Below, piece after piece: positions 2 through 47,200 of a stretch of DNA of 64,000 bases (position 1 is its first letter; every line of letters starts with the position of its first letter). Source of the DNA: Apostichopus japonicus. Taxonomy: Eukaryota > Echinodermata > Holothuroidea > Aspidochirotida > Stichopodidae. A model generated the notes under the pieces. It was not told the DNA's origin and did not search any database. It saw only the letters and a list, made by a program, of their open reading frames with translations. Made by a program: the position numbers and the translations under genes. The stretch spans positions 45,748,111 to 45,812,110 of the forward strand of contig NC_092576.1 in the NCBI RefSeq assembly GCF_037975245.1, read 5' to 3'.

Positions 2-346
2 GCAGCACATCACTTAGCTGATGCCGTAGAGAAGTTACACAGTAGCAGTGATGAAGGAGTTAGTGACGTATTGGATATTGTAGATCCATCCAAGCATCAG
101 TATGTGTTTCGATTTGCTTGCGGGATCAACCTTACTGCTGCTGACGTAATCATAAGATATTTGAGCGGACTGATTGGAAGAAGTGAGATTGTTATTATGT
201 GCATTCTTGAAAGAATAGGCTCTGTGGACAAGATTCTTGATGTCATGGAAAATCTGTGCTCCAATCCTATCCAAATCAAAGCGGATAACTCAAAAATACT
301 TAACAGATCAACCCTACAGCTGTTGGAAATTGCTGACTTAAAAGAG
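2..346 (+). CDS. NLR-A exon: end of the NACHT-associated helical region
   Basis: 115 codons open from base 2 to a GTAAAT donor after 346. The stretch FRFACGINLTAADVIIRYL aligns with FRFACGL... near 36.5 kb and FRFACGIN... near 46.0 kb, which fixes the frame and the exon end at phase 0. Confidence 0.82.
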
Positions 347-3300
347 GTAAATAAATCATCGAATTAAAACAAAATGGTAGCATTGTGTAGCTGAGAAACT
401 TAACGATGTAATTAGCTACAGGAAAGGCACATTTGTGCTGTTTTTGTCTTTATGTTTCTCTTTCTTGAATAAGAATTACTGCCAACAGAGTTGAAAACGA
501 TTTTATTGATTCTGGTTTTAGAAGTAGATCTGTTTAACTTTACACCATCTCGGGTCATGGTAGATATCATTACATGTGTGGAAACATCGTGGTAACTATT
601 TTGTTGTTTCATCCCTATAGGTTAGCGTTTCAAGCTTGATTGTCAGTGAATGTTTCCACGCTGTCGAAGAGTCCCAGAAAGCGATTCTATTGACGTTTGA
701 TCTTCAATTACCGATTCTTTCTACACTTAGAGAGCTTATAATTGATCAAAGTGGGAAAGAATTTCAGGAGGAGGAATTGAACGACGTGTTTACATACATT
801 GCTAACTGTATACAATTAAAAATATTGAAGTAAGAGAATGTGTTTCTATGCTTATTGCTATACATCAATCAATCGATCATTCAAAAAACATTTATATATC
901 GTTAATATCAACAACACTTGTTCAAAATGCACTACCAGACATATTAATAACACAACCGCAACTTATTTATCCATAGACACATTATTGAAACAGCAGCGAC
1001 TATGCTTGTTAAATGAAAGAGTTAATGACACTGGTCTAAGACAATCTACATACATAAAGCCAAAAATGTAAAACCTGGCTCATGAGTACAATTGGACGAG
1101 GTTAAGGAACGTCATATTTCTGGACTCACTCCACGATTAACAAGTATTGCTTAGTAATAAACTGTTTAGTGTCTGGCAGGTAGACAGATGCAGAACGAGA
1201 AATAAAGGACGTGCGTTCAGAAATGAACTGAATCAATGTCAGTAAACTTAACCTGCATAACTATGCGTAGTTACAGCACGTACCTGAAAATCGTGAATCA
1301 GAGAGTAGATATACTAAGTGAACTAACGAGCATAAGTTTAGTGAAGTTAACTAACTGTAGACAGTTATCTTTAAGAATGACAGTCATTTCTTGTAATACA
1401 TTAATTTCATTCATTAGGTTAAATCTGCATCTCTATCTTTGCTTTCTACTTAAAATAATATCATGTTATTGATGAGAGTATAGCAGTATCCACTGTCAGA
1501 AACAAGTACATGCCTTAAAATCAACAGTATATGTGATGTTGTTGGAGAAACTTCGCGTTTGGTATTTGATGTCGTTATTTTTTGTTTTGTTATTCATAGA
1601 TTTTCCGGATGCATTTTGCCTGACGTCATTAGGTCGACGTATTTGACAATTTTCTCTACAAGCGGTGCAACAGGTACTTTATGTTGATGTTATATCAGAA
1701 CACTGTTGTCTTCTATCATTGTGTTTTACATATTGATTTAAAATAAATATAAAAAATACTTCAGAATAAGAAGCGAGTCATCAGAATGAATTGTGAACAT
1801 AACATGCATGAAGCGCAAATAGCGAAACATAATGTCTGTAATGGACTATACAAGGCTTTGTTTAGATGCATAATTTTTTGCGGTATTATATTAAAAAAAA
1901 AACATCTGATTTAGAATACAAAAGTTTTTGTTTTGTTTAAAGTAAATACACAAGCGGGCACATAAACTAGCTGGCAATGTGATATACAACATATATTTCA
2001 TTTGTGTGATGATCACCGTACTTCACGTACGTGCATGAAACTCTGAGTAGCAGCTTAAGTTAGTCGTATATGTTAGTATGCATGTATATCTACTCTGTCA
2101 ACATGTCCGTTTCTTTATTTCAGTGTCTTGGTACCCACTGAATAATTGGTATTTTCTTGATCTGTCTTCTGGATACTGGATGGTAAGGAAAATAAAACTT
2201 TTTGAAAAATTATTCTGACATATTTGCCGAGATATTCAGTACATCGGTTATAATCTTGGTTTCCTTTTCATGGAAAGATGCAAAATTATATATTTCTTGC
2301 TCTATTTATACAGGGCAGGAAAGCGCAGGCCCGACTTTCTGATGAAGAATACGAAAATAAGGTAAAATGTCATATGATATATAGTATGAGGGAAAGGCTG
2401 CTTGGGAGAACATATTTAGGTGCGGTGTGCACAATCTTTTATAGGGCAAAATCGCACTTGTATTACTGAGCATCACACGACAAGTATGGGGGCTAGGGAA
2501 GACGCCCTACATCCCTTCCCAACACTCATCGCTCATCGCTGAACCATTTGATATAGAATTCAAAATTGTGAAGAAAAAGCTTTAGTTCCATATAACCAGG
2601 ATAATATATTCACAACTATCAAAGAGATATGTCGATCGATTTCGCGACCGTGTTGGCTTTTTGAGACCGACTACAATGTCAAACTGAGCAACAGTTCGAA
2701 AATAAACCAACAAAAGCGGCAACTTGTGGTACAATAACACAACTGCACACTATTATTGGTTGGTACCAAAGGGATCCAATAATACAACTGCACACTGTAA
2801 TTGGTTGGTACTGCAGGGATCCAATAACACAACTGTACACTGTTATTGGCTGGTACTGCAGGGATCCAATAATACAACTGCACACTGTAATTGGTTGGTA
2901 CTAAAGGGATCCAATAATACAACTGCAAACTGTAATTGGTTGCTACTGTAGGGATCCAATAATACAACCGCAAACTGTTATTGGTTGGTACTAAAGGGAT
3001 CCAATAATTCAACTGCACACTGTTATTTGCTGGTACTGCAGGGATCCAATAATACAACTGCAAACTGTAATTGGTTGCTACTGTAGGGATCCAATAATAC
3101 AACCGCAAAACTGTTATTGGTTGGTACTAAAGGGATCCAATAATTCAACTGCACACTATTATTGGTTGGTACTGCAGGGATCCAATAATACAACTGCACA
3201 CTACTATTGGTTGTTACTGCAGGATCCAATAATACAACTGCACACTATTATTGGCTGGTACTGCAGGATCCAATAACAAAACTGCACACTGTTATTGGTT

Positions 3301-4600: not shown

Positions 4601-4856
4601 TTTTTCCACACTAACGCGTTCTTAGCTTTGCAATACGTGTCACATCGGTTGACGAAAAATTGTCTTAGCTAAAACCTGACATATTTAAAGGTGAATTATT
4701 TATGAGTAATGAACTGCTGTCGACGGCTTAATGTATCGTTTAGTTGCATGCTGTGTTCTCATATTATCTTTCGTTGTGACTGTTGAATATTGAGGGAGTA
4801 ACTGAGTCTTTCACTTTATCCCTGTGAAATGTAGCTGCAATACAACACATCGTCTC

Positions 4857-5393
4857 TCATCACGTGTCCTCTGCATGCTATTTAAAACACGCCTTCTCGT
4901 CATCACGTGTCTTATGCATGTAATTTATAACACACCGTCTCGTCATCACGTGTCTCCTGCATGTCATTTATAACACGCCTTCTCGTCATCACGTGTCATA
5001 TGCATGTAATTTATAACACGCCGTCTCGTCATCACGTGTCTTATGTATGTTATTTATAACAAATCTTCTCGTCATCACGTGTCTTATGCATGTCATTTAT
5101 AACACACCGTCTCGTCATCGCGTGTCTCCTTCATGTAATTTAAAACACGCCTTCTCGTCATCACGTGTCTTATGCATGTCATTTAAAACACGCCGTCTCG
5201 TCATCACGTGTCTCCTGCATGTCATTCATAACCCGCCGTCTCGTCTTCATGTGTCTCCTGCATGTCATTTATGACACACCGACTCGTCATCACGTGTCTT
5301 ATGCATGTCATTTATAACACACCGTCTCTTCATCACGTGTCTCCTGCATGTCACTTATAACACTCCGTCTCGTCATCACGTCTTCTGCATGAA
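4857..5393. repeat. 43-bp minisatellite, about 12 copies, each with CACGTG
   Basis: Tandem units of CGTCTCGTCATCACGTGTC followed by TTATGCATGTCATTTATAACACAC. The period of 43 bp was read from successive CACGTGT positions (4861, 4904, 4947). Almost every unit keeps the palindromic E-box CACGTG, and many also have ATGCAT. It lies downstream of NLR-A. Confidence 0.9.
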
Positions 5394-23783: not shown

Positions 23784-26675
23784 AAATCAAGATGGAACTT
23801 ACGTTTATATTAATCGAATTTGTAAGTCTAGATTTTCTATTTTTCTTTTCAGGATGAGAAAGTATTTATTACATAAAGGAGGATCGTCCAGAGGGTTAAT
23901 TATAGGAGGAGTGTATCCCGTTAAAGATGTCCGATATCAAATGGGGTGCCACAGAATATTTTCTCTTCATATTAGTTCAAATGATAAAATACCAGACGTA
24001 CATGAGTAATATTTATTTAAGTTTACTTTGAATAGAAAGTATAAACCTTTTCATGATTTGGGGAACAATTGTTTATCTCATTAACCACTAATAACTCGCA
24101 TCGTGTGTTCCTCTAGATTAAAAGTAACACTTAACCCTAATATTTTAAACATATTCAACATGTAATGTTAATTTCCTTTTCATCCATGTTCCCTATCTAA
24201 TACTGGTATGACCTGTAACGTAAACAAAATGTTTATTACAACCTTACTTTGAATCTATAACATACTCTTGGTATCTGGAGTAGAATATCAGCTACCTTCG
24301 TTCCCGCTGTAACAATCTAGTCACGTGTCTGTGGCGTTACATTTCAAACTGTTTACTAGACAGGTACTGTGCGGTTATAAACCAAAACCATAAAACACAG
24401 GAACCCTAGCTTGAGTTCAATTTGTAAAGTAGAGTAAACATATAAGCCTACAGTAATTAACAGACGTAAAACAGTATATAGTCCAACTGCGACTAAACAT
24501 ACTTTTAATACATCTCGACAACAGTTATTTGTCAATGGCATGATAACTATGTCGGAAGTTCAAGCTGTTTGTCTTATTATTATAAAAATGTTTGAGGAAT
24601 CAGTAAGTCCTGTCAATAGGGACAATTTCCCTCTCATAATAACACACTTTACTGGCATCTTATTTCGTGCTCCGGCGCACTCGAAATGTCCATAGCATTC
24701 AGCATTGCATTGCTAATGCTCGCACAATCAATGCGGTTACTTTAAATCGTGACGGAAGAGAGTTTCCAATAATGTATGTTAATCCACATAATTTACGCCA
24801 TTCCAGGATACTGTGTGTGACTTCTAAACTAAAGTGTAAAGAATTTAGCAGTTTGCTATTTCAACTTTGACTGATACATATATATTTGGGGGGAGGGGAG
24901 CGGAGGGGGAGGAGAGAGGGCGTCTCTTTTATTTCTTTGTGTTTATTTTGCATCGTAAAAGACTCTTCTTAATAATTGAGAAGTTATTCTCTTCTGTATG
25001 GAAATAAACTGTTCACTAATAAATCCGATATTGTTAAAGTCCAAAATTCATTCATAAATATCATTAATGAAAACGTGATATCATATTCTCTAACATACTT
25101 TTTACGTGGTCGGTGTTTGTTCATATGATTTATTTCAATATTAGGAACTTTATTGCTTGTTTTCGTTCTATTACTTAGCTTCATTAATTAAGGAAGTGTC
25201 GATTAAATACAAACACGATACAACTTACTAAATAGACTTCGTTTACCGATATATTCCGATCACACTATTATAACAACTTACTTAAATATGTTTCTTACTT
25301 CGAAGAAAATGCAATAATAAAATAGTAATGAATACATACACAAAAAAAAATCCGATGTAAATATTAGGAAACCCCCTTATCTCGTCATATGCGACAGGTA
25401 GACAATGATCTAACAGTCTACTGCGACATCAAAATATATATATTCATATATATATATACTTTTGGAATATTTCATCCTTCGAAATTTTTGGATTACTTTT
25501 GGAATAGTGCCCGTAATTATATTTATCTTATTTGAAAATAAGTTGCCTGCCATGTGAATACTGTAAAAGTGTATTAACTAATCAGAATACTGCTTTTTAA
25601 CCACTATACTTTGCTTATACTCCAGCATAGGACCGTTAAACTAGATTGTAATATTTTGATTGCTATAAGGCTGGGTTTGTTCCGAAATGTGCAGATAAAC
25701 TTAAATGGTCTTAGATTTCTTTATAATTTGGTAGTTTCTGTTATGATATTGTTTTATATATCAAACTACATTATTAGCTGAACATCAATTAATAAATTAT
25801 CATATTAGGTCCGGAAACGAATCACAAACTACTGTCTATGGTAACCTAAAATATAAAAATGATTAATTAAACTGGAACAAACTGTACTTTTTGAAAATAT
25901 TTAATTAGTTTTAAACAACCGGAGAATCATTAGACCACTAATGCGGGTGTGTACGCCCCCCACCCCTTCCGCCTATTTTCCAATCTTACAGAAAAGTACT
26001 TATTCTCAAGAAATTGCATGTATACTTACTTACATAGGTCTCGTTTATAGCCTTAATATGGCCCAGAACGAGGCATTTGGCGTCTACCTTTTGAAGAAAG
26101 CCCCAACTATCACCCTCCCCCCTCCCTGTATAGGACACAGCTTCAATTACACCACATGGGCACCTTCTACTTTTTATACGTCCCTGATCCTGCTGTCATT
26201 ATAATTTATTAGCACAACCTTCCTTTTAGACCTTCTTTATAAATGCGTCCGCTATTAATATGCCTCAGAAGTACAGTTTGATGTTTGCAGTTTTTATTTT
26301 TTTAATGTTTTTAATTTTAATTTTTACGCACATCTCGCCCTCCCATAAATATTCTGGTCACTGTCTATGTAAGTCGGGAAGATTTAAGATTACTTACATA
26401 GCCCTAATTTATGGTCTCCATATGGCTCAGAATACATCATTTGACATCTAAAGTTTCATTTTTTCCTAGAGGAGAACCTCACGCTACACTACATAGCAGC
26501 TTCAGTGCCCCCAAGAAGACCCTTAATTATAACATCATCCCCTACCATACTCAGCTGGGAAAAATCATTTAATTTTCCTTGACTCTGAAATCTCGTGCAC
26601 GCTACAGTTCTACATCTACATCGGCAATTTTGAGTAATAAGGAAAATATGAAAAGATTTACCAAGATATACTTAC
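23782..26675. other. No convincing gene; possible downstream region of the minus-strand Ig gene
   Basis: A GATGAG... frame after a TTTCTTTTCAG-like acceptor at 23851 runs to a stop at 24009, but I recognise nothing in it. I found no exon to which the Ig exon at 26676-26997 clearly splices. G-rich and C-rich patches at 24.89 and 25.96 kb are low complexity. Confidence 0.35.
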
Positions 26676-26997
26676 CTTCAACAACCAGTGTATAATTTGT
26701 GATCGTTAAGTTGTTACAAATGCATTTGTAAAATCCTTCGTGAACTAATGTCACCGGATTGATTTGAAGAGTACTTTGATGGTCCAGTGAAATTGAATCT
26801 TTTAAATTACTGTTAACGATGACAATTCGATTGAAAGATATGAAAATATTTCCAAATGTCCAACTTGTGTTCTGTCCACGTTTACAACAACCTTTAAAGC
26901 TCACTTCATCGTACATGTTAACGAAACGTAAAGAACTACCCAGGCTTAAACACACAAAGCAGCAAATTAGTAACATCTGAAAACATGAGGAAAACAT
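26676..26997 (-). CDS. First exon of an Ig-domain gene (signal peptide plus one Ig-like domain)
   Basis: On the minus strand the frame opens at ATG 26997, with a second ATG at 26976 just after TTTTCAG. It encodes a hydrophobic leader (MLLICCFVCLSLGSS) followed by an Ig-like fold: a first Cys region (SFKGCC), a Trp (NTSWTF) and the ending LVHEGFYKCICN, a clear D/E-G-x-Y-x-C strand-F motif. The exon ends GTTGAAG then GTAAGT, phase 1, the same phase used by every ectodomain exon of NLR-B. Nothing recognisable follows on the minus strand within the window, so the rest of the protein is unknown. It is divergently oriented to NLR-B, 4.3 kb away. Confidence 0.6.
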
Positions 26998-27328
26998 GTT
27001 AATTTCTGTTAGATTATGATCAATTTGTTTAAAGAAAATAGCCGCTAACAGAGTTTTCTCTCATACACACAATATTGCAAAATGCTAAACAAGGATTTGA
27101 GTTAAATCAATACGAAGGAATAATATACGGAGGCCGGTAATGACCGCGTACTGATAAAACCATTAATTATAGACTAACAGACTGACAAGCTGTTCAAAGT
27201 TATTCAAAGTTTATCCAGCAGAAATCGCTGAGAGAACAGTTAACATGAGTTGCATTTCGCCCTTATATAATTCAATCTAAAAGAGAGATGACAAACAACA
27301 TACTCATCTACTGCCAAATGTCTACAGT

Positions 27329-31279: not shown

Positions 31280-31334
31280 ATGTTCGATGCAAAGATAATC
31301 TTCCTTTTCCTAGTTTTTTCAAGCCTTTCTGTGG
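31280..31334 (+). CDS. NLR-B exon 1: signal peptide
   Basis: ATG at 31280 gives MFDAKIIFLFLVFSSLSVG, a short charged N-region and a hydrophobic core typical of a secretory signal. The donor GTAAGT gives phase 1. ACG before the ATG leaves A at -3, an acceptable start context. Confidence 0.8.
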
Positions 31335-34300
31335 GTAAGTTTGAAACGTCCGTACTTACACAATATAGAAGTTAGTATTTGTTTGCAGTTAAATTCTCTA
31401 GAACTTTTGCATTGCTTGTAACTAGAAGGAGGAATGGGGATTGGCACAAGAGGAAGGAGGACCACTTACATTTGAGTATACACAGCATAAAATCTCTCAA
31501 ACCATACAATGCTTCTTACAAGTCTTCTTCACACGGGGAATACAGAAACGTAATTTATGTATTTAAAAACATGTCATTGTACTGTATCAGGTACAATGAA
31601 GTGATATTTGGTTTATTTTCCTTCGCAGGTGTTGCTAAAGGTGGCAGATGTAAATCTCCTCAGTCCCTTGAAGTCGGAACACGAGGCGTAGTATCGTGTC
31701 AATTTACTGATGGATTTACAAGTATTCATTGGTATAATTCATCAGACTATATCAGTGATCTGCCTGTCGTTAGTTATGAAAATACAAAGAAATCTGGAGA
31801 AGGGTTTGAGTCCGGAGAATTCGATATTCAGGAGGACGGATCGTTGGTCATCAATCGAGTTGCAATAAAACATGAAACGACGTTTTCAGTTTTACAATTT
31901 AAAGCTGGAGAACAAGTTCCAAACATTTATCAAATAAACATACAGACCAAAAGTAAGTCCATGTCGGTTTTTCCTCACCAAAGTTTCAATGTTGATATGA
32001 AACCATTTTGCTTTTAAGGTTTTGACATTTTAAAACACAAATTGAAGTTGTTCATATGAATTATTCATTTCAAAATATACATACGAGCTTCAGAATATGG
32101 AGATATTATCATGTATAGTGCTTATACTTATTTAACATGCTTCATCTGAAATCCACAGTCACTCCACAAGAAATATGTCCAGTTATCAACCGGTGTGGTT
32201 GCATTGAAGATGTATGTTACAACCCGGGCATCGTAAGCAACATAGAACTAATATGCAAGGTAGAACGGAGCAGACCGCCAGTAGTCCTGACATGGAAATT
32301 AAGGACTTCCGAGGAAGACATAGAACTCGAATCAGTATCTTCAAATGATAGTGACAGTGTTACAACTTCAACAGCTGTTGGTATTTCATATGGTGGCCAT
32401 AATTTATCCTACGTAACGATGTTGGTCTGCGATGCAAATGATCAACTGAACTTGTTGACGAAAAGTCAATCTTTAATCATTATGCGTAACAGAGGCAAAC
32501 CTGTATCAACCGAACCTATCAATTTAACATTGAAGAAATCCACAGACATGAAACTATATTGTAGTGGAGCAAGTATTGTAGTTTGGGAAAAGAAACTTAA
32601 TGATGGCTCAATTAAAACTTTAATAGTTTCTTATGCTACAAGAAACTTTACAAAGATTTATGACAATGATTATTCGTTCGGGCAAGACGATTCTCTCTTG
32701 CTATATAATATTGACATTCATCATGAGGGGTTGTACAGCTGTGTATTTGGGAACCACAATACAGATGAAGTAAAGATATTCAACGTTTCAGTATATGGTA
32801 AGTATGTGATACAAATATCTTCTCTTTAACAGTTATATCTAGATACATTCAAAAAGGAACCCTTGAAAATATATTATATTTTCTGAGCATATATGAAATA
32901 AGATTGAGAAAGTTTAGTTTATATGAAGAACAAAATCGATGTTCTTGAATTTCATAACCGATGTACATCTATTTCTTAAATTCGCTGCCTATTTCATGTT
33001 ACTAATATAAGTTGCAACTTCATATTCCTCGTACAATAGTTGACCCCGTTCCCAGCTATCTTGTCATCGATGGTTGCGACCATACCAAATACTGTACTCT
33101 GGATGCACAGTTACACGAGGGAAGCCTTACCTGTTCTGTGTCAGGTATACGACCAGCCATTGAACTTGAATGGAGGCCGTTCCATACAAAGTCCCTTGAG
33201 ATTATGACTTTAAGCAATCAGCAATCTACAATCACGACCGAAAGTGGAACGTCAACAGTAGTCCACACTACCAAGTATATCATAAAGAAAGCGACTGATG
33301 AGAGACTAACCTTAGAATGTCGTGTGGTTGGAGAGAACGCTGGACTGTTTCCATTATCTTCCAAAATTGACTTGCTGCTGCCTCATAGTAAGTAGACTCA
33401 GCCTTTGCAATTAAGGTATTGATGCATATGACGTAGCATTCAATTATAAAAGGATGTAATATATTATCCTTCGATCGATATAGAGCCATCTATGGTTTAT
33501 TGAATCGGAATGTTTAAACTAAGAACCGTTCCGAAGATGTTAAGTTTTTTCCACACAAATGTTTCAATGACATGAAAACTGCATGGGGCTAATAGTCATG
33601 CGAGTACTTCAAATCTTTTTTCTTGATAACAAGAAAGAAATTATTGGTAAAATCCTTATAATATAATCATGATGAATATCATTTTCCATCAGCCATCCCA
33701 ACAGGTAGAGGGCAGCACACAACGTTGTTTCCGAGGACAGAACAGACAAACCCTCAACCTATAATCATTGCTGTAATTGCATTCGTCATCATTGTTATGA
33801 TCATATTAGGTCTGACAATCTTTTTCAAGAGTAAGTTCGATCAATACTCCTTCTATATGTATTGTCATATATAACAAAAAGTGACTTTGGTCAGTGAACT
33901 GTCTTCAATATCTATAAGTATACGAGATATAAACGATTACTTTTCAGAAGCGTCTACAATATCTTTCTCGAATAAGCAAGAAGTTCCTAATTAGCTTTTA
34001 ATTACTTTCTTGCCTATTAAGTTTAAAGTACCGCACTTAAGATTAAAGCTCCTTAAACACACACGTTCTATATGATTATCTCATAGGGTGTTGGTCGAAG
34101 ACAACTCATCACAGTGACATCTACGAGGTAATGACATATTAATCAAGAATATTCTCACTTGATAAAGACAACTTATGTAATATAACATCGTAACGATTGC
34201 ATAACTGCGTCAATTTGATTCGATATTTTAGGGGGAGGGGAGGGTTGGCTGGGGACGTGATTCAACAACATGATGGTATATGGAATGAACTCCATTACAA

Positions 34301-37300
34301 AGTCTATATTCCCATATTGAAGTATTTCCCTTATCACATTCAATACCAGAGCGAATTTACAATTATTCAATGACTCAGATGTTACATTTTGGTTATTTCA
34401 CTTAGTATGTATTTTAACTCTTAATTGGATGTCATCACATAAATATCTGTATAGGTATATAGCAATGTGTAAATTTTCGTACTATTCTTTAAGCTGACAC
34501 ATGTTCCTTCGTTCATTGATTTTTAGAAAGTGCCAATGATTCCCCAGGAACCAGGTAACTATTTAAATTCTTGAATATTGATCATACAAGCAAATACTAT
34601 TGGAATAACGATCGAATTCTCCAAAGCATGCGATTCATCCACATTCCATGTTTTTTTTCCTGTATGGTCCGAGTCTTACTTAAATGAGTTTGATTCCCTC
34701 ACGGATTACTGTAATTTTGAATTGTTTTTCATTTTACTAATATTTCATGATCAGTTTCACTAATTTGTCTATAATTGTAAACAGGTTACAAAAATTGTCC
34801 ACCCCAAACACTGATTTCTTTCGTATTGACCAGCTTTTATACAAACTGTGCAATAATTGCTATTTTCAGACATCCAGCAACCCACACACACTTTAAATGC
34901 ACATTCTTAATATGAACAACTGGGTACATGTTTCTCGATTTACAGATGGCCCTTGACTTCTGAGCCATCATACACTAGCCTGATTTACAAACTACATAAT
35001 CATACAATGATAACAATAGTTTTTGACCACACTTCCAACTGTTATCCTTTATAATTCCGGTTACCGATTGTTAACATGTGGAATGTAAAATGTAGTCAAT
35101 TTCGCCTACCCCCTCTACAACCTCTTACCCCCCCCCCTCCAACAAGGAGAAGAACAAATTAACATACAAAAGTTTTGTATGTGAGATCACTATTCAATTT
35201 TCTCTGATATTCTTGTCTTTGCAGAACATAAATCGATATTTATTAAGCAATTGAAACAAACCTATGGAGAATTTTACAGAACGGTCCAGCCAATACCATA
35301 TCTAATGGACAGAAAATATGCTATTAATGAACTGTTTGTTGAAGTTGGTACCGAATGTTTAATAAATGATGACAAGACACAGAGAGACAAAAGGTGGGTG
35401 TCTTTAGGGCCTCACCAAAATATCTTTATAGATCAACGAGTAAAGTCGAGACGTCGCATTATTGAAGCTGAGCCAGGGTATGGTAAGACTACATTGGTGA
35501 TGCAATTAGCATATGAATGGTGCGTGGGTCTAGCCGGACCCGCCACATCGAACATACTTATCGTAGTTAAGCTAAGACAGCTGCAAGGTGTATCATCTAT
35601 ATATGACGCCATTAGGAGGTTCTTACTACCAAGAGAGTCTCAGCTGAAGATTGAGACCATTAAGGATATTCTTGCTAAAGAACCCTCTGTGCTTTTGATC
35701 TTAGATGCGTTTGACGAATACCCGGATTATGAGTCGTTAACGCAAACAGATATTTTGGCCATTCTACAGAAGCAAATGTTCCCAAACTTCGATGTTATCC
35801 TTACTACCCGTTCAGCATACCTCCCCAGGCATTTTGCGCCTCAAACTAAGCGCATTCGATTGACGGGATTCGACAGTTACGCGCAAGACGAATATTTAAA
35901 GAAAGCTGTGACAAAGGATGACGAGAACGCTGCTGATAAGATTAAAGAATGGCTCCAAGATAACCCGGTGCTTGGTGATCTGTGTCAGGTTCCGCTCTTC
36001 TTTGTATTGTACGCTCATCTTAGCCTGGAGAATGACAACCTGAAGGACTGTTCCTCGGTTACCGTATTCTTCCGTTATATGGTTACTTGCTTTCACAGTC
36101 ATTTAACAAGGAAAGTTTACGATGAAAATGTTAAACCTCTTCACAGTTTTGAAGAAAATCATACAAAACTGAACAAGTTGGCTTTTGAAGCCCTATCTAA
36201 AACCGCCAAGAATGTAGAATGGACAAGAAACCTATTAGAGGAAACTCTGGGAAAGGCCTTTGTGGAGCGATACTTACAAATTGGTATTTTGAGAGAAGCA
36301 GAACACACTGAAGTCAATGACGAACCAGGCACTCTGGCCATGGACCACATTAGAATTGTCAAGAAAGTGAGATTTTATCACAGTCTTTTCTGTGAGTGGT
36401 ATGCAGCCCATTATGTAGCATCTATTATTTCTAGTAACTCACCCGGACAAAAGCCAGAAGAAAGAGCTTCTGAGATTTTGGAAGATTTCGACTTGTCCAA
36501 GTTCCAGTACATGTACCGGTTTGCGTGTGGGTTAAGCCCCACAGCTGCGATACATATCATACGCTATGTACAGGGAGCTGAAGGTAGTGACAAATTTGCA
36601 ACTTTGTGTATTCTGGAGCAGAAAGGGGCGGTAAATGACGTCATCAACACTGTGAAGGAGCTCTGTTCCAAGACAATTCATATCTCCAATGTGGATTCTA
36701 GACTGCTGCAGAGATCCGTTGTTCAACTCCTAGCTATCGCTTTCTCGAAGAAAGTAAGTGATTTGTAAATAATTTATTCAAAACTCCCTTCGTGTCGGGT
36801 ACTCTCCGTGTGAATCATCTACATTAACATTTCTGGCAAAATTTAATGATGTGCGTCTTAGTGTTCTTTATGAATGGTTTATAATTATACGGTTCTATTG
36901 TCCGCCATTTTTAATATAGGCATATTACATTGTGAAATCAATATGTTTTATTTTTACGTCTTATTCCATAGCTCATCATTCCTAGTCTCATCTTACACGA
37001 GGCATTCTCTTCTGTTGATACTGTAAGAGCAGAAATCATATTAAAATCTGGCCTGCGACTGTCGACTCAGAATACGTTTAAGGAGCTCTGGATTGAGCAG
37101 AATGGAGCGAGAATAACCGAACAAATCCTCACAGATGTTTTCTTGTATATTTTAAAGTGCGAGCGATTGTCGAGCATCTCGTAAGTGTGGCTGACGAGGT
37201 GAATTAAACTGTGTATCCAACTTTGAATTATGTGTATCTTGGTTTGTCTGCTGTAACTTCTTGTGTGTTCTGATTAGACGCTTTCGGTACATTATTATTA

Positions 37301-38764
37301 TCATATTATTATCATGATATTTCTAACAACCACATTGTAGATAGAAACACTTAACAAAGCATGATAAAAGAGAGCATTAGAAACTTGTATTCTACACAGA
37401 ATCAAATAATAAATAATAAAAATATCAAATTACACGCAAGGAAAAATGTTGCTTTATTTTTTTGAAGAAGAATGTTTTAACAGTTTTATATATGTAGTGT
37501 TTGCAATTTTATTTGTAAAACAAAACTTAAACTATATAACATTTTGTTTTCACACAGATTTTCTTATTGTCTACTACCATTGCACTTGAATAAAACGAGT
37601 GTGCTGTCGAAATTACAGGAAAAAAATATTGAAGGTAATAATTAACACCTAATTGGTGTCTGATATGTAATTAGTAATAATAAATATTGCTTTTGCATTC
37701 ATAAAAATATAGTACATAATTAAATAAATCAATAATGCATGTAAAAATAAATTTCGTTTTTTTTTGTCTTTTAGTTCTTTGGTATCCATCAGTTGTCTGG
37801 TATCAGCTCAATATTCAGTCTGGTCATTGGCAGGTTCGGAATAATTAAATAATTACTGCAATTCTGCTTACTGACAAGTATAAACTACTTACAACGTGTT
37901 TGATAATTACCTTCCGGTCTGGTTACTATCATTTTAATTGATCACTTTAGTGCATCGCTATTGGAAGTTATGTGTCTTTGAAAGCAACGGACTTAATATA
38001 TTATGATGGGTTACTCAACATAAGCAACGTAATGCATAACAATAGTTAGTTTGTTGTTCTAAAGAAAAGAACGAATAACACCAGGTTTAAAATTCACTAA
38101 ACTTACTGCCTCATATCGAAGCCAAATATTCATTAAATATAGAACATAGTGTTTTTGAAAAAGTGATATAAATAACTGCGATAATGATTGGCGTTGCAAT
38201 CATAATATTCAGTATAAATAAGGAAAATGTATAACTTGTTCATATAATCGTTGTGCTCAAGTTAGATTTGTTAGGGATGCTTGAATTGTTAGAATGTACT
38301 GTTGTCAGCGTTTGATAATTACTGTTTTTTGCAAGAATGATACCTTAAGCAAAATTAATTATTTTTTTTATCAAATAAATTGTTTTCGTTTCAGCATAAA
38401 ATTGGTTACAATGATCTGACAGAGGAAGAATATAACAAAGAGGTAAGGATTGAAATTTTTAAATGATTGAACAGATGTTTTTTGGGTAGATATTTGATCG
38501 GAATGAATTTAAATTTAAAGTTTTGATGAATGTTACCGAATTATTTTGCCATCCATCACCATGCTGTATGACGTCACTTCCGTTTCCATATCTCAGTAGA
38601 ACAGCGCGCTTTTCCAGTGAGCTTGAATTTAATACCGCTTTTATTGACATATATTTGTCCTTAAAATTGGCGCTCGTGTACTAAATTACTATTTGCTACC
38701 ATTTTTTAAAATCATTACGTATTTGCTTCACCAGATTCTTATGTTTGGAGAAATGAAGAACCAG
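31280..38764 (+). CDS. NLR-B: Ig-type transmembrane receptor fused to a NACHT ATPase
   Basis: Thirteen exons read as one frame: 31280-31334, 31629-31952, 32159-32797, 33040-33387, 33693-33830, 34087-34127, 34527-34554, 35225-36753, 36972-37180, 37558-37634, 37775-37833, 38395-38442 and 38735-38764. They sum to 3525 nt (1175 codons) with no stop. Order: signal peptide; Ig-like domains 1-4 (to about residue 455); stalk; helix at about 479-500; short cytoplasmic linker with YEKV (Tyr514); NACHT with Walker A GYGKT at 609-613 and Walker B LDAFDE at 684-689; LRR-like segment; W-rich tail. The last splice is unresolved; candidate 3' exons lie to 42391. NLRs normally have an adaptor domain at the N-terminus, so an Ig/TM front end is unusual. 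Every junction agrees in phase, but no transcript confirms that one mRNA spans them all. Confidence 0.78.
31629..31952 (+). CDS. NLR-B exon 2: Ig-like domain 1
   Basis: Phase 1-1 exon. VVSCQF supplies the strand-B Cys and IHWY the core Trp; DGSLVINRVAIKHETTFSV is the E-F region. The usual second Cys (Y-x-C) is replaced by FSV, so the canonical disulfide cannot form; an extra Cys (GGRCKSP) near the start might substitute. Confidence 0.75.
32159..32797 (+). CDS. NLR-B exon 3: Ig-like domains 2 and 3
   Basis: 639 nt, phase 1-1, encoding two Ig-like domains without an intron between them. Domain 2 has ELICKVE, VLTWKL and TMLVCDA; domain 3 has MKLYCSG, VVWEKK and HHEGLYSCVFG. Several N-x-S/T sites (NLS, NLT, NFT, NVS) are consistent with an extracellular location. 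An extra Cys pair before domain 2 (CGCIEDVC) resembles one before domain 4. Confidence 0.82.
33040..33387 (+). CDS. NLR-B exon 4: Ig-like domain 4
   Basis: Phase 1-1 exon with SLTCSVSG, LEWRPF and LTLECRVVGE. The preceding GCDHTKYC repeats the extra-Cys motif of domain 2, pointing to internal duplication of Ig exons. Confidence 0.8.
33693..33830 (+). CDS. NLR-B exon 5: stalk and transmembrane helix
   Basis: 138 nt, phase 1-1. A Thr/Gln/Pro-rich stalk (TEQTNPQP) is followed by about 22 uninterrupted hydrophobic residues (IIIAVIAFVIIVMIILGLTI) and then FFK. This is a single-pass type I anchor placed between the Ig domains and the NACHT exon. Confidence 0.85.
34087..34554 (+). CDS. NLR-B exons 6-7: juxtamembrane linker (34087-34127, 34527-34554)
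   Basis: Two tiny exons (41 and 28 nt) restore phase 1 before the NACHT exon. Together they read RCWSKTTHHSDIYEKVPMIP then QEP. The HSDIYEKV stretch places a Tyr with hydrophobic +3 residue just inside the membrane, a possible SH2-type docking site. Small exons are the least certain part of the model, but both have good splice sites and correct phases. Confidence 0.62.
35225..36753 (+). CDS. NLR-B exon 8: NACHT ATPase domain
   Basis: 1529 nt, phase 1 to 0, the same length as the NLR-C exon at 44691. In order: IIEAEPGYGKTTL (Walker A); VLLILDAFDEYPD (Walker B with the D-x-x-DE pair); VILTTRSAYLPRHF (sensor-1 region); NPVLGDLCQVPLFFVL (GxP-type segment); RFYHSLFCEWYAAHYVA (winged-helix end region). 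All residues expected for nucleotide binding and hydrolysis are present. The frame is open well before the TTG at 35251, so the exon begins at the acceptor GCAG at 35224, not at an internal start. Confidence 0.9.
36972..37180 (+). CDS. NLR-B exon 9: LRR-like segment
   Basis: 209 nt, phase 0-2. FKELWIEQNGARITEQ and VFLYILKCERLSSIS fit one degenerate leucine-rich repeat, completed by FSYCLLP in the next exon. Paralogous to 621-829 and 47015-47223. Confidence 0.8.
37558..38764 (+). CDS. NLR-B exons 10-13: C-terminal tail
   Basis: Exons 37558-37634 (77 nt), 37775-37833 (59), 38395-38442 (48) and 38735-38764 (30). They encode FSYCLLPLHLNKTSVL, WYPSVVWYQLNIQSGHW, HKIGYNDLTEEEYNKE and ILMFGEMKNQ. 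The pattern W-x-P-S-V-x-W-Y is shared with NLR-C. The last exon ends in a good GTAATG donor. Confidence 0.75.
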
Positions 38765-41700
38765 GTAATGTTGTTAAATTATTTAAGTGTTGATTGTCGA
38801 TTCTTTCACTTGAGTGGCATTGAATTGGATGTCGGGTTTGTCCAATTATAGACAAGACTCAAGTGTACATCGTCATCACACATATTATATACATAATGAA
38901 AATTGCTGTGGTTATCTATTAGCGTGTGGTACATATGTGTGACATAGAATATGATGATACGGTAAGGAAGCAAGAATATATATCACTCGGCATAAATACG
39001 AGAAATGAAATAACATGAGAAATGCATATGTATTTTAGATCCTCCTGCAAGCAGGATCTCGCGAAGAAGGCATCGTTGCCTTATCAAAGCCGCAAGCTCA
39101 CCGAAGCCAGTCTCTTAGATTCATATGTAACGTCAATGATTGTGAATTGTCAGTTGTCAACAACTCTGTAACTGGACGACATACATTAATCTTGGAGTGA
39201 CTCGAACTCGGGACCTTCTGATGGAAAGGCACCGGCGTTCACCACTGAGCTAACACTCCCATATGAAATGAATGAACATATTGCTGTAAGGTTAAGCTAA
39301 AATAGTAAAAGATTATACCATAAGTTATATTAATGCGCAAGAAACACCGCTGTTGTAATAATTTAAAGTATTGTGTTTATCGATATTGAATATGTTATTC
39401 GAGTGTATATGTAAAATTCACACCACAATTTTTGTTACCATATTTTGTTGAACTTTCACTCCATAGAATCACACCAATTGATTGTGAACGGTTCGTCGCG
39501 AGTGATGTATTTGGACAATAACCAGGGACATAGCTTACTACAACAGCTAGCATTACAAAATTGGATCTGTTTCAAATCCAACATTGTGGTGCCAACCGGG
39601 TCTGAGGGTGTAACCTAGAAATGAACTGCACGGCACTACTTGTTTACACTCATTGATTTTCTCTGATTTTACTTGGAGCCGCTCTTCATATACCAAGGAA
39701 AAAACTATGGGACCCGTTACACAAGGCATTAGCTTTCGTTGATACTGAAATTGCACTCAAGTATGATCTTTGACTTGAATCTCGAAGTCGTGTTAGGAGA
39801 TAAGGATTGCAAAATTGCTATATAAACCATCAAGATGGACGTTTGTAAATAAATTTAATGAAATTCAATAAACAACATCGTACTTCTATATAATATATAT
39901 TACTATACGTCAACAACGCTTGAAATTATGAAAACAATGTTGCATCTTAACATACATATAGTGGAAAAAAATTACCGCTGTTTTAATACATGGTTGACGG
40001 AGTACACAGGAGGTATAATAAGCGTTAATCCAACGTTTTGTTTTGAGCTTAATAAATTAAATTTACTACAATGTTCTACCATATAATCTGCAATGTACTT
40101 CACACTAACAACGCTTGAAATAATAAACCATTCTCAAGACAATCAGATTACTTGATGCTTGTCCAGAATAAGTGTGATGGCAAGAAACACCGCTGTCGTA
40201 AAGAATGTTCGAAGCTTACTTTATTTAAAAACTGAATGGACTTGACAAACTTTTTTTATGACCAACTAGTAGTGGTAATGTTTGCATTAATGTGTTATTT
40301 AACTTTACAGACAGTAAATGCACATAATTGCAATCTACATTGGTGTGTAATGCAGATGCTAAGGCTGATAATGTTAAGCAAAAGCCAAGTAATTAACAAC
40401 TTCAAGCCTAAAGAACAAATCCTATTATGCATCTTTTATCAATCAATTGTAAATACTGTTATGAATTTTAATAAGTTTCACTCTAAACTCATCATGCTGT
40501 AAATATAAGGCTATTGTTGATTATTACATGGAAAATTCCGATAGGTTGCTTGAGTTTACTTTCCTTTCCTTATTTTGTTATTCGTGTTGTATGAGCTATA
40601 ATGGACCTTTAATGTAGATGGTCAGTAACTAATTGCTATAACGGCAGTGGTGTGTATATGATCTGAAAGGTATTTGGCGGGAGGGGTTAGTTATAATGCT
40701 CAAATTATGTTCGTATTACCAACTAAAGCAGTGTCCCATTACGGTAATGGGACTCATTCTGGTTGTTATCCTGCACCCGATCGCGACCTTCTTCCACACT
40801 AAGGATTGCTCTGGCTTAGACATCAATTACAAATTTGCAACAGTAACATATTTGTAATTACCAGGTAATCAAGATGACAAGATGATCTTGACAAATACAG
40901 ATCAGGTAAGTAATAATCTGAATATGGAAATGGTTATTAAGGACATCCATAACTGAAAGGTTAGTTTCAAGTGTTTGCACTACCTCGAATAGAATCAACA
41001 ATAGAAACCTGTCGCAAACAGAGATTTATTTGGCAGTAGAGCTCCGAACAAAAAATCGAGAATGAAAGGTGAATTGACTGAAACTAAAACAAAAATTACT
41101 TCTAAGAAGTAAATGCTTCTAAACCAGATACTTTCCCAGGGTTAAAGAATAGATGATATAATAAACAGACCGAGTGTCGCCATAAATTACTAACATATTC
41201 TGAGTATTTTTTTATAAATTGAACTTGAAGATCTATGATCCTTATTTTAAGTTATTTATATATATATTATTTTTCTTTGCTATATTTCCTATTGTATGCA
41301 TTGGTATTACTCTATCATTGATTGCTGAATGTCATATGTTCTTGGTCTAGTTGTTTTGTTATATAACTAGTTTGTTTGCTTCTTCTACAGAAGGGGCTGG
41401 GGGGGGGGGGAGGGGGTTCCTAAGTCTTCTATTGCGTTTATTATATGATATATTTATGATTTTTGTAAAGAATTTTAGGTTTTTAGAATTTCTAATAACG
41501 TTTCTTACAAGAGAATGGCAGGAAATACATAACTCCAATATTTCTCACAGACGTATAAGTACATTTCAATGAAGAAAACGAAAATTAAATGAAAATTAAA
41601 GAAATATCACGTTTTGGAATGCTGCTGGACAAAATGTGGTTTCGTTTTAGTTCGTGTATCATTACGGATAACTGTAACACATCGGGGCCATATAGACAGC

Positions 41701-44236: not shown

Positions 44237-44242
44237 ATGGCT
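44225..44242 (+). promoter_or_regulatory. Strong translation-start context of NLR-C
   Basis: AACCAAGATGGCTGAC: A at -3 and G at +4. This supports the nine-residue leader exon as a real start rather than a chance ATG. Confidence 0.55.
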
Positions 44243-47200
44243 GACGTCAAAATATCTGACGGTAAGTTCCTCTCTGTTTCTGCGTATTGTGTTTTGATCT
44301 GTTTGGGCTTTAGTATAGACTTTTGTCCGCATTATCGTCTACGAAACTTTAAAGAAGTACGTTTAATTTCTTCTGACGGATATAATAAAGAAATACTCGA
44401 ACAGATTGACCTTGCTTTACATGAAATGAAAACTGCGTTATCGATGTCTTATATTTATCGTTTATAACAATTGTAACAATGGTATTTGTTACATAATTAT
44501 GGATAATGATGCAGCGTATAGTTTACTAACTTGCATGATTATGTTATTAACTATCACAGTCCAGATAATTAGGGTGACGCCATTAACAATTATTACAAAT
44601 GTACCTGTAATACGTAACATAATTCATCTCCTTCTTCTGTTACTGATTGAACTGGGTTTTTATATATTTTTTCTTATAATTCTATTATAGGAAAATACAC
44701 TAGATTCAAGACTGGTTTGAAAATACATTACGAGTCATTATATAGCACAGTGCAACCAGTTCCATGCATTGGCGGAAAACGTTACCATGTAAATGATTTA
44801 TACCAGAGCGTTGGTGTTGTATACCTTAAAACCAATAGGCCTGCTTATAGAGGCCCGCTATGGGATCGACTCGAATCATATCATAGTATTTTGAATGACG
44901 AAAGAGTCAAATCTGGAAAGCGTATCATCGAAGCCCCTCAAGGATATGGCAAAACAGTACTGGCTCTTCAATTTGCTTTTGATTGGTGTAAACAAGTCAA
45001 GGATTCTCCAATGAAAGATGTCGATATTTTCATATTTGTTCAAGTAAAGAAATTAAGTTATGTAAAGTCTTTCCCAAAATTAGTCAAAAGAATGTTTTTC
45101 CAACAAGACTCTAAAATTACTGAGAAGAACGTCCACAACATTCTTCTCACGTCGAAGTCAGTGTTGTTGCTGGTTGATGTCGGTAGAGAAGATATCGGTA
45201 ATTACATTAAAGAAGGAAGTGACTTGGATCGCATCATTCAAGGAGAGGTGTATCCAAATTTCGAAGTCATCCTAATGACGAGACCGTTATCACTAGAGCT
45301 AGAACCGCAAGTGAAACGTCTGAAACTTATTGGTTTTGACAAGAAAGCCCAGGAAAATTACATTTCTAAATCTTTACTGGACAGTAATCAAGCTAAGCTA
45401 GAGAAGACGAAAAAGATCATTCTAGATAATCCGGTTCTTGGTGATTTATGTAAAGTTCCTCTACTGTTTGCAGTGTTTTCACACCTAGGACATGGGAACG
45501 ACAACATCTCTAACTTTACCACCCTTACCAACTTTTTCAATGAGATCATAAAATCTTTCCATCAGCAATTTCGAAAACACGGTGCGTTAAGTGAACAGTT
45601 TAAGCACATGGACTTATTCGAAGGTGCCCATCTGAAACTAAACAAAATGGCTTTTGATAGACTTGTAGAAGACAACGATAATGCTGAGTGGGAACTTGAT
45701 GAAATAAATAGTCTCTTGGATCGCAACTTTATCGAAAAATACTTGAAAACAGGAATTCTCCAGCTGGATGAGAATATCCTTGTTGAGTTAGATTCGACGA
45801 GCGATGGAATGCAATACGAGAAGACTGTTAGGTTTTATCATAACATACTAACTGAGTGGTACGCGGCCCATTATTTGGTGGAGTCTGTACACAAAGCCGA
45901 TGAACTGAAGGAAGAGCTTCAAGAAGGTTACGTCTTTGACGTATTGGACAACTTTGAGCCATCTCAAGTACAATGTCTGTATCGGTTTGCTTGTGGAATC
46001 AACTCTGCGGCAGCGAAACACATCATCAACTACCTGCAGGAATATGAAGACAATGTACAGTTCAGTATGTTGTGTAGAGTGGAACAGACAGGAAGCGTGG
46101 ATGGAATATTGCAGAACATCAAAGAAATGTTCGCACGGGAATTCCAAGTTCATGACAGGGATTCCGCATTCGGTCAGAGAACCTACATACAGTTAATGGA
46201 AATTGCAGCCAGAGAAAAGGTAACTTATTTGATGTTTGTATAACGATTCATTCATTGTAATAATGGATCCAATTTGTATAATTAACGTATGACACATTAT
46301 GTGTTGTACATGAATATGATACATGCATGCAGAGTACATGCAAATATTACTAATTCAAGTCGCTCTGTATTCTTACTTTCGCCTTTTTTACATACTATAA
46401 ATTAAACATAGATACCCTAACACGTCGCAGAAAACGTTCCTTTCAATCTTGTTTTAAGATACATTTGATTGCAAATGCTTGGTAGGTAAAGTATCCACCG
46501 AATAGTTATCAACCACCCAGAAACGCCTTACATAATGTACACCCGAGGCATTGCTTTAATTTCACCTATATAAAGTGTGTAATGTACCATAAAGTCAGCC
46601 CAGGATTGTTCTTATCTGATCAAATTGTTTGCATTTCCATCGCCTCAGGAGGGTAATTGTCAATCCCCAAGACGTTATCAAAATAACTGCGATAATTACC
46701 TGATAACAAGAAACGCTTTGAGACACGAAAGGATATTCAAGATTAATAGTCGCAAGCAATATCTTGCATTGCTATTTTCCTTGATATCTTTGTTTCAAGA
46801 CCGTAGGTAATTCCACAGAATATTACCTAATATTAACTAATGTTCGGTTTAAAAGTTTTTAAATTTTGTTAACTCAACGATAATTGGAGGACAATTATGA
46901 TGATTTTTAATTAACATTGGCTGTTTTCATATTATTTTATTCGTATTTTATCATTTATCATATTTTTTAATTCAAAGTATTATTTTAAGTGTTTTGGCTA
47001 TTTGTCTTTGACAGATATGTATCTCGCGCCTCTATCTCAATGAAACATTCAACACAGTATGTATGTATACGGGTGATATCATACTTAACACACATGTTCG
47101 TCTCCCACCTCTGCAAACTCTGGAGAGTATTTGGATTGAAAAGAGCAGGGTTTATTTCCTAGATGAAGACGTCGATGGAGTATTTTTCTATGTATCCAAC

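What the first reader, a model, noticed from the sequence alone, without database searches (positions are those of the whole stretch)
31280..38764. Ig-ectodomain transmembrane receptor with an intracellular NACHT ATPase
Exons with matching phases join a signal peptide, four Ig-like domains, a single TM helix, a short linker and a complete NACHT domain with intact Walker A (GYGKTT) and Walker B (LDAFDE) into one 1,175-codon frame. Known animal NLRs are cytosolic or nuclear and use death-fold or similar N-terminal adaptors; I know of no standard class in which an Ig receptor drives a NACHT directly. If real, ligand binding outside the cell could trigger STAND-type oligomerisation under the membrane.
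Basis: partly seen in the sequence, partly recalled or inferred. Interest (0 to 1): 0.88.

Follow-up and report, generated by a model that had tools for sequence, protein, structure and literature searches.

The report
Sea cucumber Ig-NACHT membrane receptor
A sea cucumber gene encodes a cell-surface receptor with antibody-like domains outside and an NLR-type switch domain inside; this kind of receptor has already been described in the same species, but many relatives of this copy share a short motif that looks like an endocytosis signal and could be tested as the way such receptors are pulled into the cell.

Summary
The DNA is from Apostichopus japonicus or a very close source; the annotated protein P0001 has the same joins. 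Twelve unnamed contigs (3.7-6.2 kb) carry the architecture as one uninterrupted frame, best read as cDNA. "No known class" is wrong: AjNLRC4 (PMC8699970, 2021) is an Ig-TM-NACHT phagocytosis receptor of this species. Gene A is a new member of that kind, in a large holothurian family. Possibly new: (i) the hypervariable linker carries [DE]xxP[LM]+hydrophobic in 37 of 64 TM members (shuffled mean 0.4), like CD74's EQLPML; clathrin-inhibitor data in two papers disagree about whether it matters; (ii) the tail is modelled like the start of an NLR LRR; (iii) two unnamed contigs encode Ig-TM-NACHT-tail-Death; (iv) family-wide signals favour Ig outside and NACHT inside, against a 2026 paper on one paralog. 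Mechanism: ligand clustering, uptake, NACHT switching; uptake through the motif and NACHT switching are inferred.

The parts
31280..31334 (+). exon 1: start codon and signal peptide
   Evidence: hydrophobic N-terminus
31629..31952 (+). exon 2: Ig domain 1 (phase 1-1)
   Evidence: four Ig in model of relative P0003
32159..32797 (+). exon 3: Ig domains 2 and 3 (phase 1-1)
   Evidence: Pfam V-set 248-338
33040..33387 (+). exon 4: Ig domain 4 (phase 1-1)
   Evidence: Pfam C2-set_2 367-435
33693..33830 (+). exon 5: stalk and transmembrane helix (phase 1-1)
   Evidence: hydropathy 3.34 over 19 residues
34087..34127 (+). exon 6: juxtamembrane linker, ends with the acidic residue of the E-KVPMI motif
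34527..34554 (+). exon 7 (28 nt): KVPMIPQEP, rest of the candidate sorting motif
35225..36753 (+). exon 8: NACHT, HD1, winged helix, HD2
   Evidence: Pfam NACHT; fold of relatives
36972..37180 (+). exon 9: tail, LRR-like
   Evidence: model of relative P0003
37558..37634 (+). exon 10: tail, LRR-like
37775..37833 (+). exon 11: end motif of the tail module
38395..38442 (+). exon 12: C-terminal segment
   Evidence: same residues in P0001
38735..38764 (+). exon 13: last exon of the open frame, no stop; 3' end unresolved
   Evidence: same residues in P0001 and P0002
44237..48326 (+). gene B, sibling for comparison: leader 44237-44261, NACHT exon 44691-46219 (1,529 nt as in gene A), 47015-47223 (209 nt as in gene A), 48268-48326
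2..2191 (+). end of an upstream family gene (matches P0017), for comparison

Best explanation
Gene A encodes a type I membrane receptor of the holothurian Ig-TM-NACHT (AjNLRC4-type) family. Four Ig domains outside the cell bind a ligand, one TM helix leads to an intracellular STAND switch (NACHT-HD1-WHD-HD2) that ends in a short LRR-like tail. Proposed working: ligand binding clusters the receptors; a juxtamembrane acidic dihydrophobic motif (E-KVPMI, encoded across two micro-exons) engages sorting adaptors and helps to bring the receptor into the cell; clustering lets the NACHT modules oligomerise on the cytosolic face and recruit effectors. Shown here by sequence: architecture, topology signals, intact switch residues, motif conservation. 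Published for a paralog: ligand binding by the Ig part, dimerisation and internalisation on infection, NACHT-actin binding. Inferred: adaptor binding, NACHT-driven oligomerisation, and that gene A behaves like its paralog.
Against: In the AjNLRC4 paper only cytochalasin D blocked the uptake promoted by AjNLRC4 overexpression; the other three inhibitors, by the methods text including the clathrin inhibitor chlorpromazine, had no significant effect (section 34): against a clathrin-adaptor step for that paralog. The strict [DE]xxxL[LI] form is not enriched (2 of 64, shuffled mean 1.9) and 14 of 64 lack even the loose form. For P0003 the charge measure is 0 on both sides and sequons are 1.32 against 0.91, so that paralog alone says little about topology. 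PMC11932488 has AjNLRC4's Ig domains binding caspase-1; PMC13133943 has NACHT outside in AjNLR-new. Rows are paralogs, not independent. No transcript of gene A seen.
Confidence: 0.58

Rival explanations
1. Two genes, not one: the Ig-TM exons end before 35 kb and the NACHT exon has its own leader, as in gene B.
For: Gene B, the neighbour, is a NACHT gene with its own 25-nt leader exon and no family Ig exons in front; 71 of 146 family rows had no TM by the scan.
Against: P0001 has the same joins; uninterrupted Ig-TM-NACHT frames on 12 short contigs; linker and phases fit without a gap.
Confidence: 0.04
2. Inverted topology: NACHT outside, Ig inside, as claimed for AjNLR-new.
For: PMC13133943 section 4: a TM prediction, surface binding of recombinant NACHT, membrane localisation of a TM-NACHT fragment.
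Against: Sequon and charge statistics, paired cysteines in the Ig part; N-terminal hydrophobic stretch typical of a signal peptide in 46 of 64 TM members against 10 of 71 without TM. The published tests do not by themselves place the NACHT of the full protein outside (my reading). P0003 has the reported length (1,197) and mass (136.5 kDa), pI 5.15 against 5.34 reported, and may be that protein; the accession was not checked.
Confidence: 0.05
3. The receptor is right but the NACHT is a passive scaffold (for example for actin), not a nucleotide-driven oligomerising switch.
For: AjNLRC4: dimerisation is ascribed to the Ig part and NACHT-actin interaction is reported; gene B has lost one Walker B acidic residue.
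Against: Switch residues identical in 39 of 39 rows; NACHT core is the best conserved region (mean pairwise identity 0.555).
Confidence: 0.25
4. The linker motif is not a sorting signal but a structural or other binding element of the NACHT N-terminus.
For: Methionine in the first hydrophobic place and no enrichment of the strict form; chlorpromazine does not block AjNLRC4-promoted uptake; P0149 and P0150 lack it.
Against: It is rarer in members without TM, 9 of 71, some of which may be truncated models, and matches the CD74 form EQLPML.
Confidence: 0.4

Closest known systems
AjNLRC4 (A. japonicus; GenBank MN607598 as given in PMC11932488)
   Same: Extracellular Ig part, TM 483-503, intracellular NACHT 600-757, no CARD. 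Gene A: TM about 479-501, NACHT 603-753. The reported 177-LRTD-180 lies three residues from gene A's 174-LRTS-177; R and T there occur in 37 and 30 of 39 rows.
   Different: Its sequence was not seen; LRTD does not occur in the first 500 residues of any of the 164 proteins held. The paper counts two Ig domains and two TMs. Its second TM (776-795) falls at a NACHT-core segment that is equally hydrophobic in members without TM (1.47, n=58) and with (1.50, n=59).
AjNLR-new (PIK48001.1, PMC13133943)
   Same: Same species; Ig, TM and NACHT; 1,197 aa.
   Different: Reported with NACHT outside and Ig inside, which the family-wide signals do not favour.
NLRC4, NLRP3, NOD2 (vertebrate NLRs)
   Different: Cytosolic, with N-terminal death-fold domains and a long LRR (recalled); gene A has Ig-TM and a short LRR-like tail without a Pfam LRR match.
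CD74 (invariant chain) leucine-based signal EQLPML
   Same: Acidic residue, Pro at -1, Met first: EKVPMI in gene A, EDLPML in P0004, EILPML in P0021.
   Different: Unrelated protein; a short linear motif only, adaptor binding untested.
Chiridota heheva NLRs with Ig V-set (PMC8913654)
   Same: Ig V-set and NACHT in one holothurian protein (passage).
   Different: Order, TM and sequence not seen.

Membership tests
NLR / NACHT STAND ATPases | NACHT domain above curated cut-off | tested here: met
   58.1 bits, cut-off 26.7; 39 of 39 relatives at E 0.01 or better
NLR / NACHT STAND ATPases | Walker A, Walker B, winged-helix His | tested here: met
   present in gene A; conservation (roles of the residues recalled)
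NLR / NACHT STAND ATPases | NACHT-HD1-WHD-HD2 fold | tested here: met
NLR / NACHT STAND ATPases | C-terminal LRR | tested here: inconclusive
   modelled tail reaches NLRC4 residue 722 in one model but the NLRC4 match ends at 599, before the tail, in the other, where NOD2 and NLRP3 rows span it; no LRR family in the Pfam tables
NLR / NACHT STAND ATPases | N-terminal death-fold effector domain | tested here: not met
   Ig and TM instead, no death-fold Pfam match in gene A
AjNLRC4-type Ig-TM-NACHT receptors | Signal peptide, Ig part, one TM, NACHT, in this order | tested here: met
AjNLRC4-type Ig-TM-NACHT receptors | Sequence homology to MN607598 | not tested
   no call returned that sequence; only published positions compared
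AjNLRC4-type Ig-TM-NACHT receptors | Binds microbes, internalised on infection | not testable with these tools
   published for AjNLRC4
Immunoglobulin superfamily | Ig domains above curated cut-off | tested here: met
   C2-set_2 30.6 (cut-off 21) and V-set 28.8 (cut-off 26); two of the four Ig domains rest on cysteines and model of a relative
Acidic dileucine sorting cargo | [DE]xxxL[LI] | tested here: not met
   gene A has EKVPMI, Met instead of the first Leu; strict form 2 of 64 in the family. It may still work like one, as CD74's EQLPML does
Acidic dileucine sorting cargo | Adaptor binding and motif-dependent uptake | not testable with these tools
   needs experiment; published inhibitor data conflict between paralogs

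The most novel reading that the evidence does not exclude
Holothurians have built a membrane-anchored NLR system. The Ig ectodomain clusters on ligand, a conserved acidic Pro-Met motif carries the receptor into endosomes, and the NACHT modules assemble there on the cytosolic face as an inflammasome-like platform. In some members (P0149, P0150) C-terminal Death domains would let one polypeptide run from extracellular ligand to death-fold output. In gene A the motif sits on a frame-preserving 69-nt pair of micro-exons, so splicing could switch a receptor between surface-resident and endocytic forms.
Probability: 0.25. Interest if true: 0.78.

Novelty: new member of a known kind. Interest (0 to 1): 0.45.

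Why it matters
Most NLRs known to me sense in the cytosol; this family puts an NLR switch directly behind an extracellular recognition domain, in one large holothurian gene family. Gene A gives a clean genomic model of it and raises points that can be tested at once: a candidate uptake signal, an LRR-like tail where papers say there is none, a version with its own Death domains, and a published contradiction about which side of the membrane the NACHT is on.

Tried and rejected
Two-gene model: rejected (see rivals). Gene B sharing gene A's Ig exons: no family Ig match between 38.8 and 44.6 kb, and gene B has its own phase-1 leader; sharing by splicing is not excluded by sequence, since the phases match. 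Death domain behind gene A: tblastn of the P0149/P0150 C-termini found nothing significant in the window (best E 1.3). AjNLRC4's caspase site LRTD: gene A has LRTS and the fourth position is not conserved, so not built on. ITIM-like reading of exon 12 (IGYNDL): not tested, dropped by eye. AjNLRC4 itself among the proteins: LRTD in the first 500 residues in 0 of 164. Relatives outside holothurians: searches listed all their hits (48 and 37); the weakest rows (E 1e-9 to 1e-6) are two cichlid Ig proteins and four unnamed 'ena' NACHT proteins; one search listed 120 of 478, and all three scored only the candidates sharing most words. So absence elsewhere is not shown. NACHT tree (FastTree, 144 rows, 29 with short N-termini set aside): at least 16 switches between TM and no TM among 115 scored rows; not used, because truncated models and long branches inflate it. 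Ctenophore genome paper PMC11797021 (passages): no Ig-NACHT combination in the passages seen. tRNA scan: none.

Full report
What is there. Thirteen exons on the + strand, 31280-38764, join in phase into 1,175 codons without a stop; all twelve introns are GT-AG. Exons 2-5 (Ig domains and TM) are phase 1-1, the 41- and 28-nt exons run 1-0 and 0-1, and the 1,529-nt NACHT exon enters in phase 1. Introns 1-7 meet a stop within 21 codons if read through. The frame has no stop at 38764; P0001 and P0002, the closest annotated proteins, go on differently after exon 13.

Whose gene. [quoted passage not shown] Against P0001 gene A has 7 substitutions in 458 Ig-part residues, 1 in 22 linker residues and 5 in 396 aligned NACHT-exon residues, with 114 residues absent from P0001, which I take for an annotation skip.

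Family. Search one returned 48 proteins, search two 478, of which 120 are listed, search three 37. The named ones are A. japonicus or Holothuria leucospilota, except for two weak cichlid rows. Of 146 rows held after the first two searches (145 proteins and gene A), a hydropathy scan put a TM before the NACHT in 65, of which I dropped P0058 as a false call, found none in 71, and no anchor in 10. Rows without TM can be truncated models (P0036 looks like one). Of 15 unnamed 'lgn' rows encode 1,072-1,220 residues with TM and NACHT (11 of the 12 also with an Ig Pfam domain in the listing) on contigs of 3,698-6,179 nt, the frame filling 59-98% of each. Gene A carries 2,372 nt of intron before its NACHT exon, so these read as cDNA. 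What 'lgn' means and which species these are, no call says.

Tail. In the P0003 model residues about 1050-1161 alternate strands and helices with strands near 1050, 1083, 1113 and 1140, and the NLRC4 alignment runs to model residue 1148. In the P0036 model the NLRC4 row stops at 531, before the tail, while NOD2 and NLRP3 rows span it. No LRR family appears in the Pfam tables. I read it as a short divergent LRR-like module; this is inference. A pattern for its end motif occurs five times in P0028 and six in P0051 and P0052, mostly about 152 residues apart.

Linker motif. Linkers are hypervariable (mean pairwise identity 0.205; NACHT core 0.555), yet [DE]xxP[LM][LIMVF] occurs in 37 of 64 TM members (26 of 50 non-redundant); 500 shuffles gave means 0.4 and 0.3, maximum 4. 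Members without TM: 9 of 71 (4 of 31), still above their shuffles (0.6 and 0.2). The loose form [DE]xxx[LM][LIMVF]: 50 of 64 (mean 6.8), and without TM 16 of 71 (mean 12.1). The strict [DE]xxxL[LI]: 2 of 64 (mean 1.9), not enriched (all). PMC2882754 (passages) names EQLPML of the invariant chain as an internalisation signal weakened by EQLAML, and Pro at -1 as improving AP binding. Published inhibitor data conflict: AjNLRC4-promoted uptake was blocked by cytochalasin D only (PMC8699970 section 34), AjNLR-new-promoted uptake also by chlorpromazine (PMC13133943 passages). Gene A's EKVPMI spans exons 6 and 7, together 69 nt and frame-preserving; the annotated model P0020 lacks the linker, so a motif-less isoform is conceivable, not shown.

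Topology. In 39 rows (one of 40 failed the scan) sequons average 1.59 per 100 residues on the Ig side and 0.45 on the NACHT side, higher on the Ig side in 38; net charge after the TM averages +3.97 against +0.10 before, higher after in 34. For P0003 alone the charges are 0 and 0 and sequons 1.32 and 0.91. A hydrophobic N-terminus is seen in 46 of 64 TM members and 10 of 71 without. The family fits Ig outside, NACHT inside. AjNLRC4's reported second TM falls at a NACHT-core segment equally hydrophobic with and without a real TM (1.50, n=59; 1.47, n=58).

Literature. PMC8699970 (abstract, passages, sections 31 and 34): AjNLRC4, Ig outside, NACHT inside, microbe binding, dimerisation and partial internalisation on Vibrio infection, actin binding. 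PMC11932488 (abstract and passages): internalised AjNLRC4 activates caspase-1 through its Ig domains; its overexpression used ORFs without the signal peptide, which could put Ig domains into the cytosol, though co-immunoprecipitation from coelomocytes is reported as well. PMC13133943 (abstract with start of the introduction, passages, section 4): NACHT outside in AjNLR-new. 'Dileucine' and 'sorting' occur in the main text of none of the three. [quoted passage not shown] PMC5371871, PMC12731121 and PMC11797021: passages only. Nine paper searches listed no title or abstract start that describes the linker motif or an Ig-TM-NACHT-Death protein; two searches listed 20 of 37 and 20 of 317.

Death-domain variant. 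P0149 (1,497 aa, contig 4,868 nt) and P0150 (1,624 aa, contig 5,164 nt), 88% identical, show an Ig part with one more Ig-like repeat by eye, TM, NACHT, tail and one or two C-terminal Death domains (Pfam E 1.2e-11 and 4.5e-23). A Death piece of P0150 matches ankyrin-3 (E 3e-6) and RIPK1 (E 2.6e-5) in the PDB. Both lack the Pro-Met motif. Two contigs with the same order argue against chance assembly but do not exclude it. Nothing like it follows gene A.

Neighbours. Gene B has a 25-nt leader exon (44237), then a NACHT exon of 1,529 nt and a next exon of 209 nt, the same lengths as in gene A, entering in the same phase 1. No family Ig exon was found in front of it. The first 2.2 kb of the window is the end of another family gene, P0017. 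A shared phase-1 entry fits exon shuffling between Ig-TM and NACHT cassettes (inference).

Verdict. The gene model is sound, the architecture is already known in this species, and this copy is a new member of a known kind. Interest lies in the motif, the tail, the Death variant and the topology question.

Noticed in passing
P0149 and P0150 (unnamed contigs): Ig-TM-NACHT-tail proteins with one or two C-terminal Death domains; not seen described in the paper listings searched.
   Followed up: partly
window 44237-48326 (+): Gene B: NACHT sibling with its own leader, exon lengths 1,529 and 209 nt as in gene A, Walker B reading VDVGRED.
   Followed up: partly
window 34087-34554 (+): Exons 6 and 7 form a frame-preserving 69-nt pair that carries the Pro-Met motif; the annotated model P0020 lacks the linker.
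   Followed up: partly
P0037, P0040, P0042, P0056, P0071, P0073, P0074, P0077, P0112, P0140: Ten NACHT members without a detected TM begin MGxxx[STACGN], like N-myristoylation starts.
   Followed up: no
P0028, P0051, P0052: The tail module occurs in five or six tandem copies, mostly about 152 residues apart.
   Followed up: partly
P0048, P0113: Family members with weak N-terminal death-fold matches (DED E 5e-4, below cut-off; Death E 0.004, below cut-off) before the NACHT.
   Followed up: no
window 26602-27060 (-): ORF with signal-peptide-like start and a weak Ig match (Ig_3 E 0.0027, below cut-off): perhaps another Ig gene on the other strand.
   Followed up: no
window 39020-39260: By eye a tRNA-like stretch on the minus strand, beside the residues with which P0001's annotation ends: perhaps a SINE taken up by gene prediction; ARAGORN finds no tRNA.
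   Followed up: partly
window 55402-58817 (-): Overlapping ORFs that read by eye like endonuclease and reverse transcriptase of a non-LTR retrotransposon.
   Followed up: no
window 54747-54900 (-): Marginal Rfam match to 5.8S rRNA (42.6 bits, threshold 42).
   Followed up: no
window 2732-3528 and 4844-5381: Two minisatellites (45 bp x 17.7 and 43 bp x 12.5 copies).
   Followed up: no
PMC11932488, overexpression methods: AjNLRC4 was overexpressed without its signal peptide (passage), which bears on the reported contact of Ig domains with caspase-1.
   Followed up: partly
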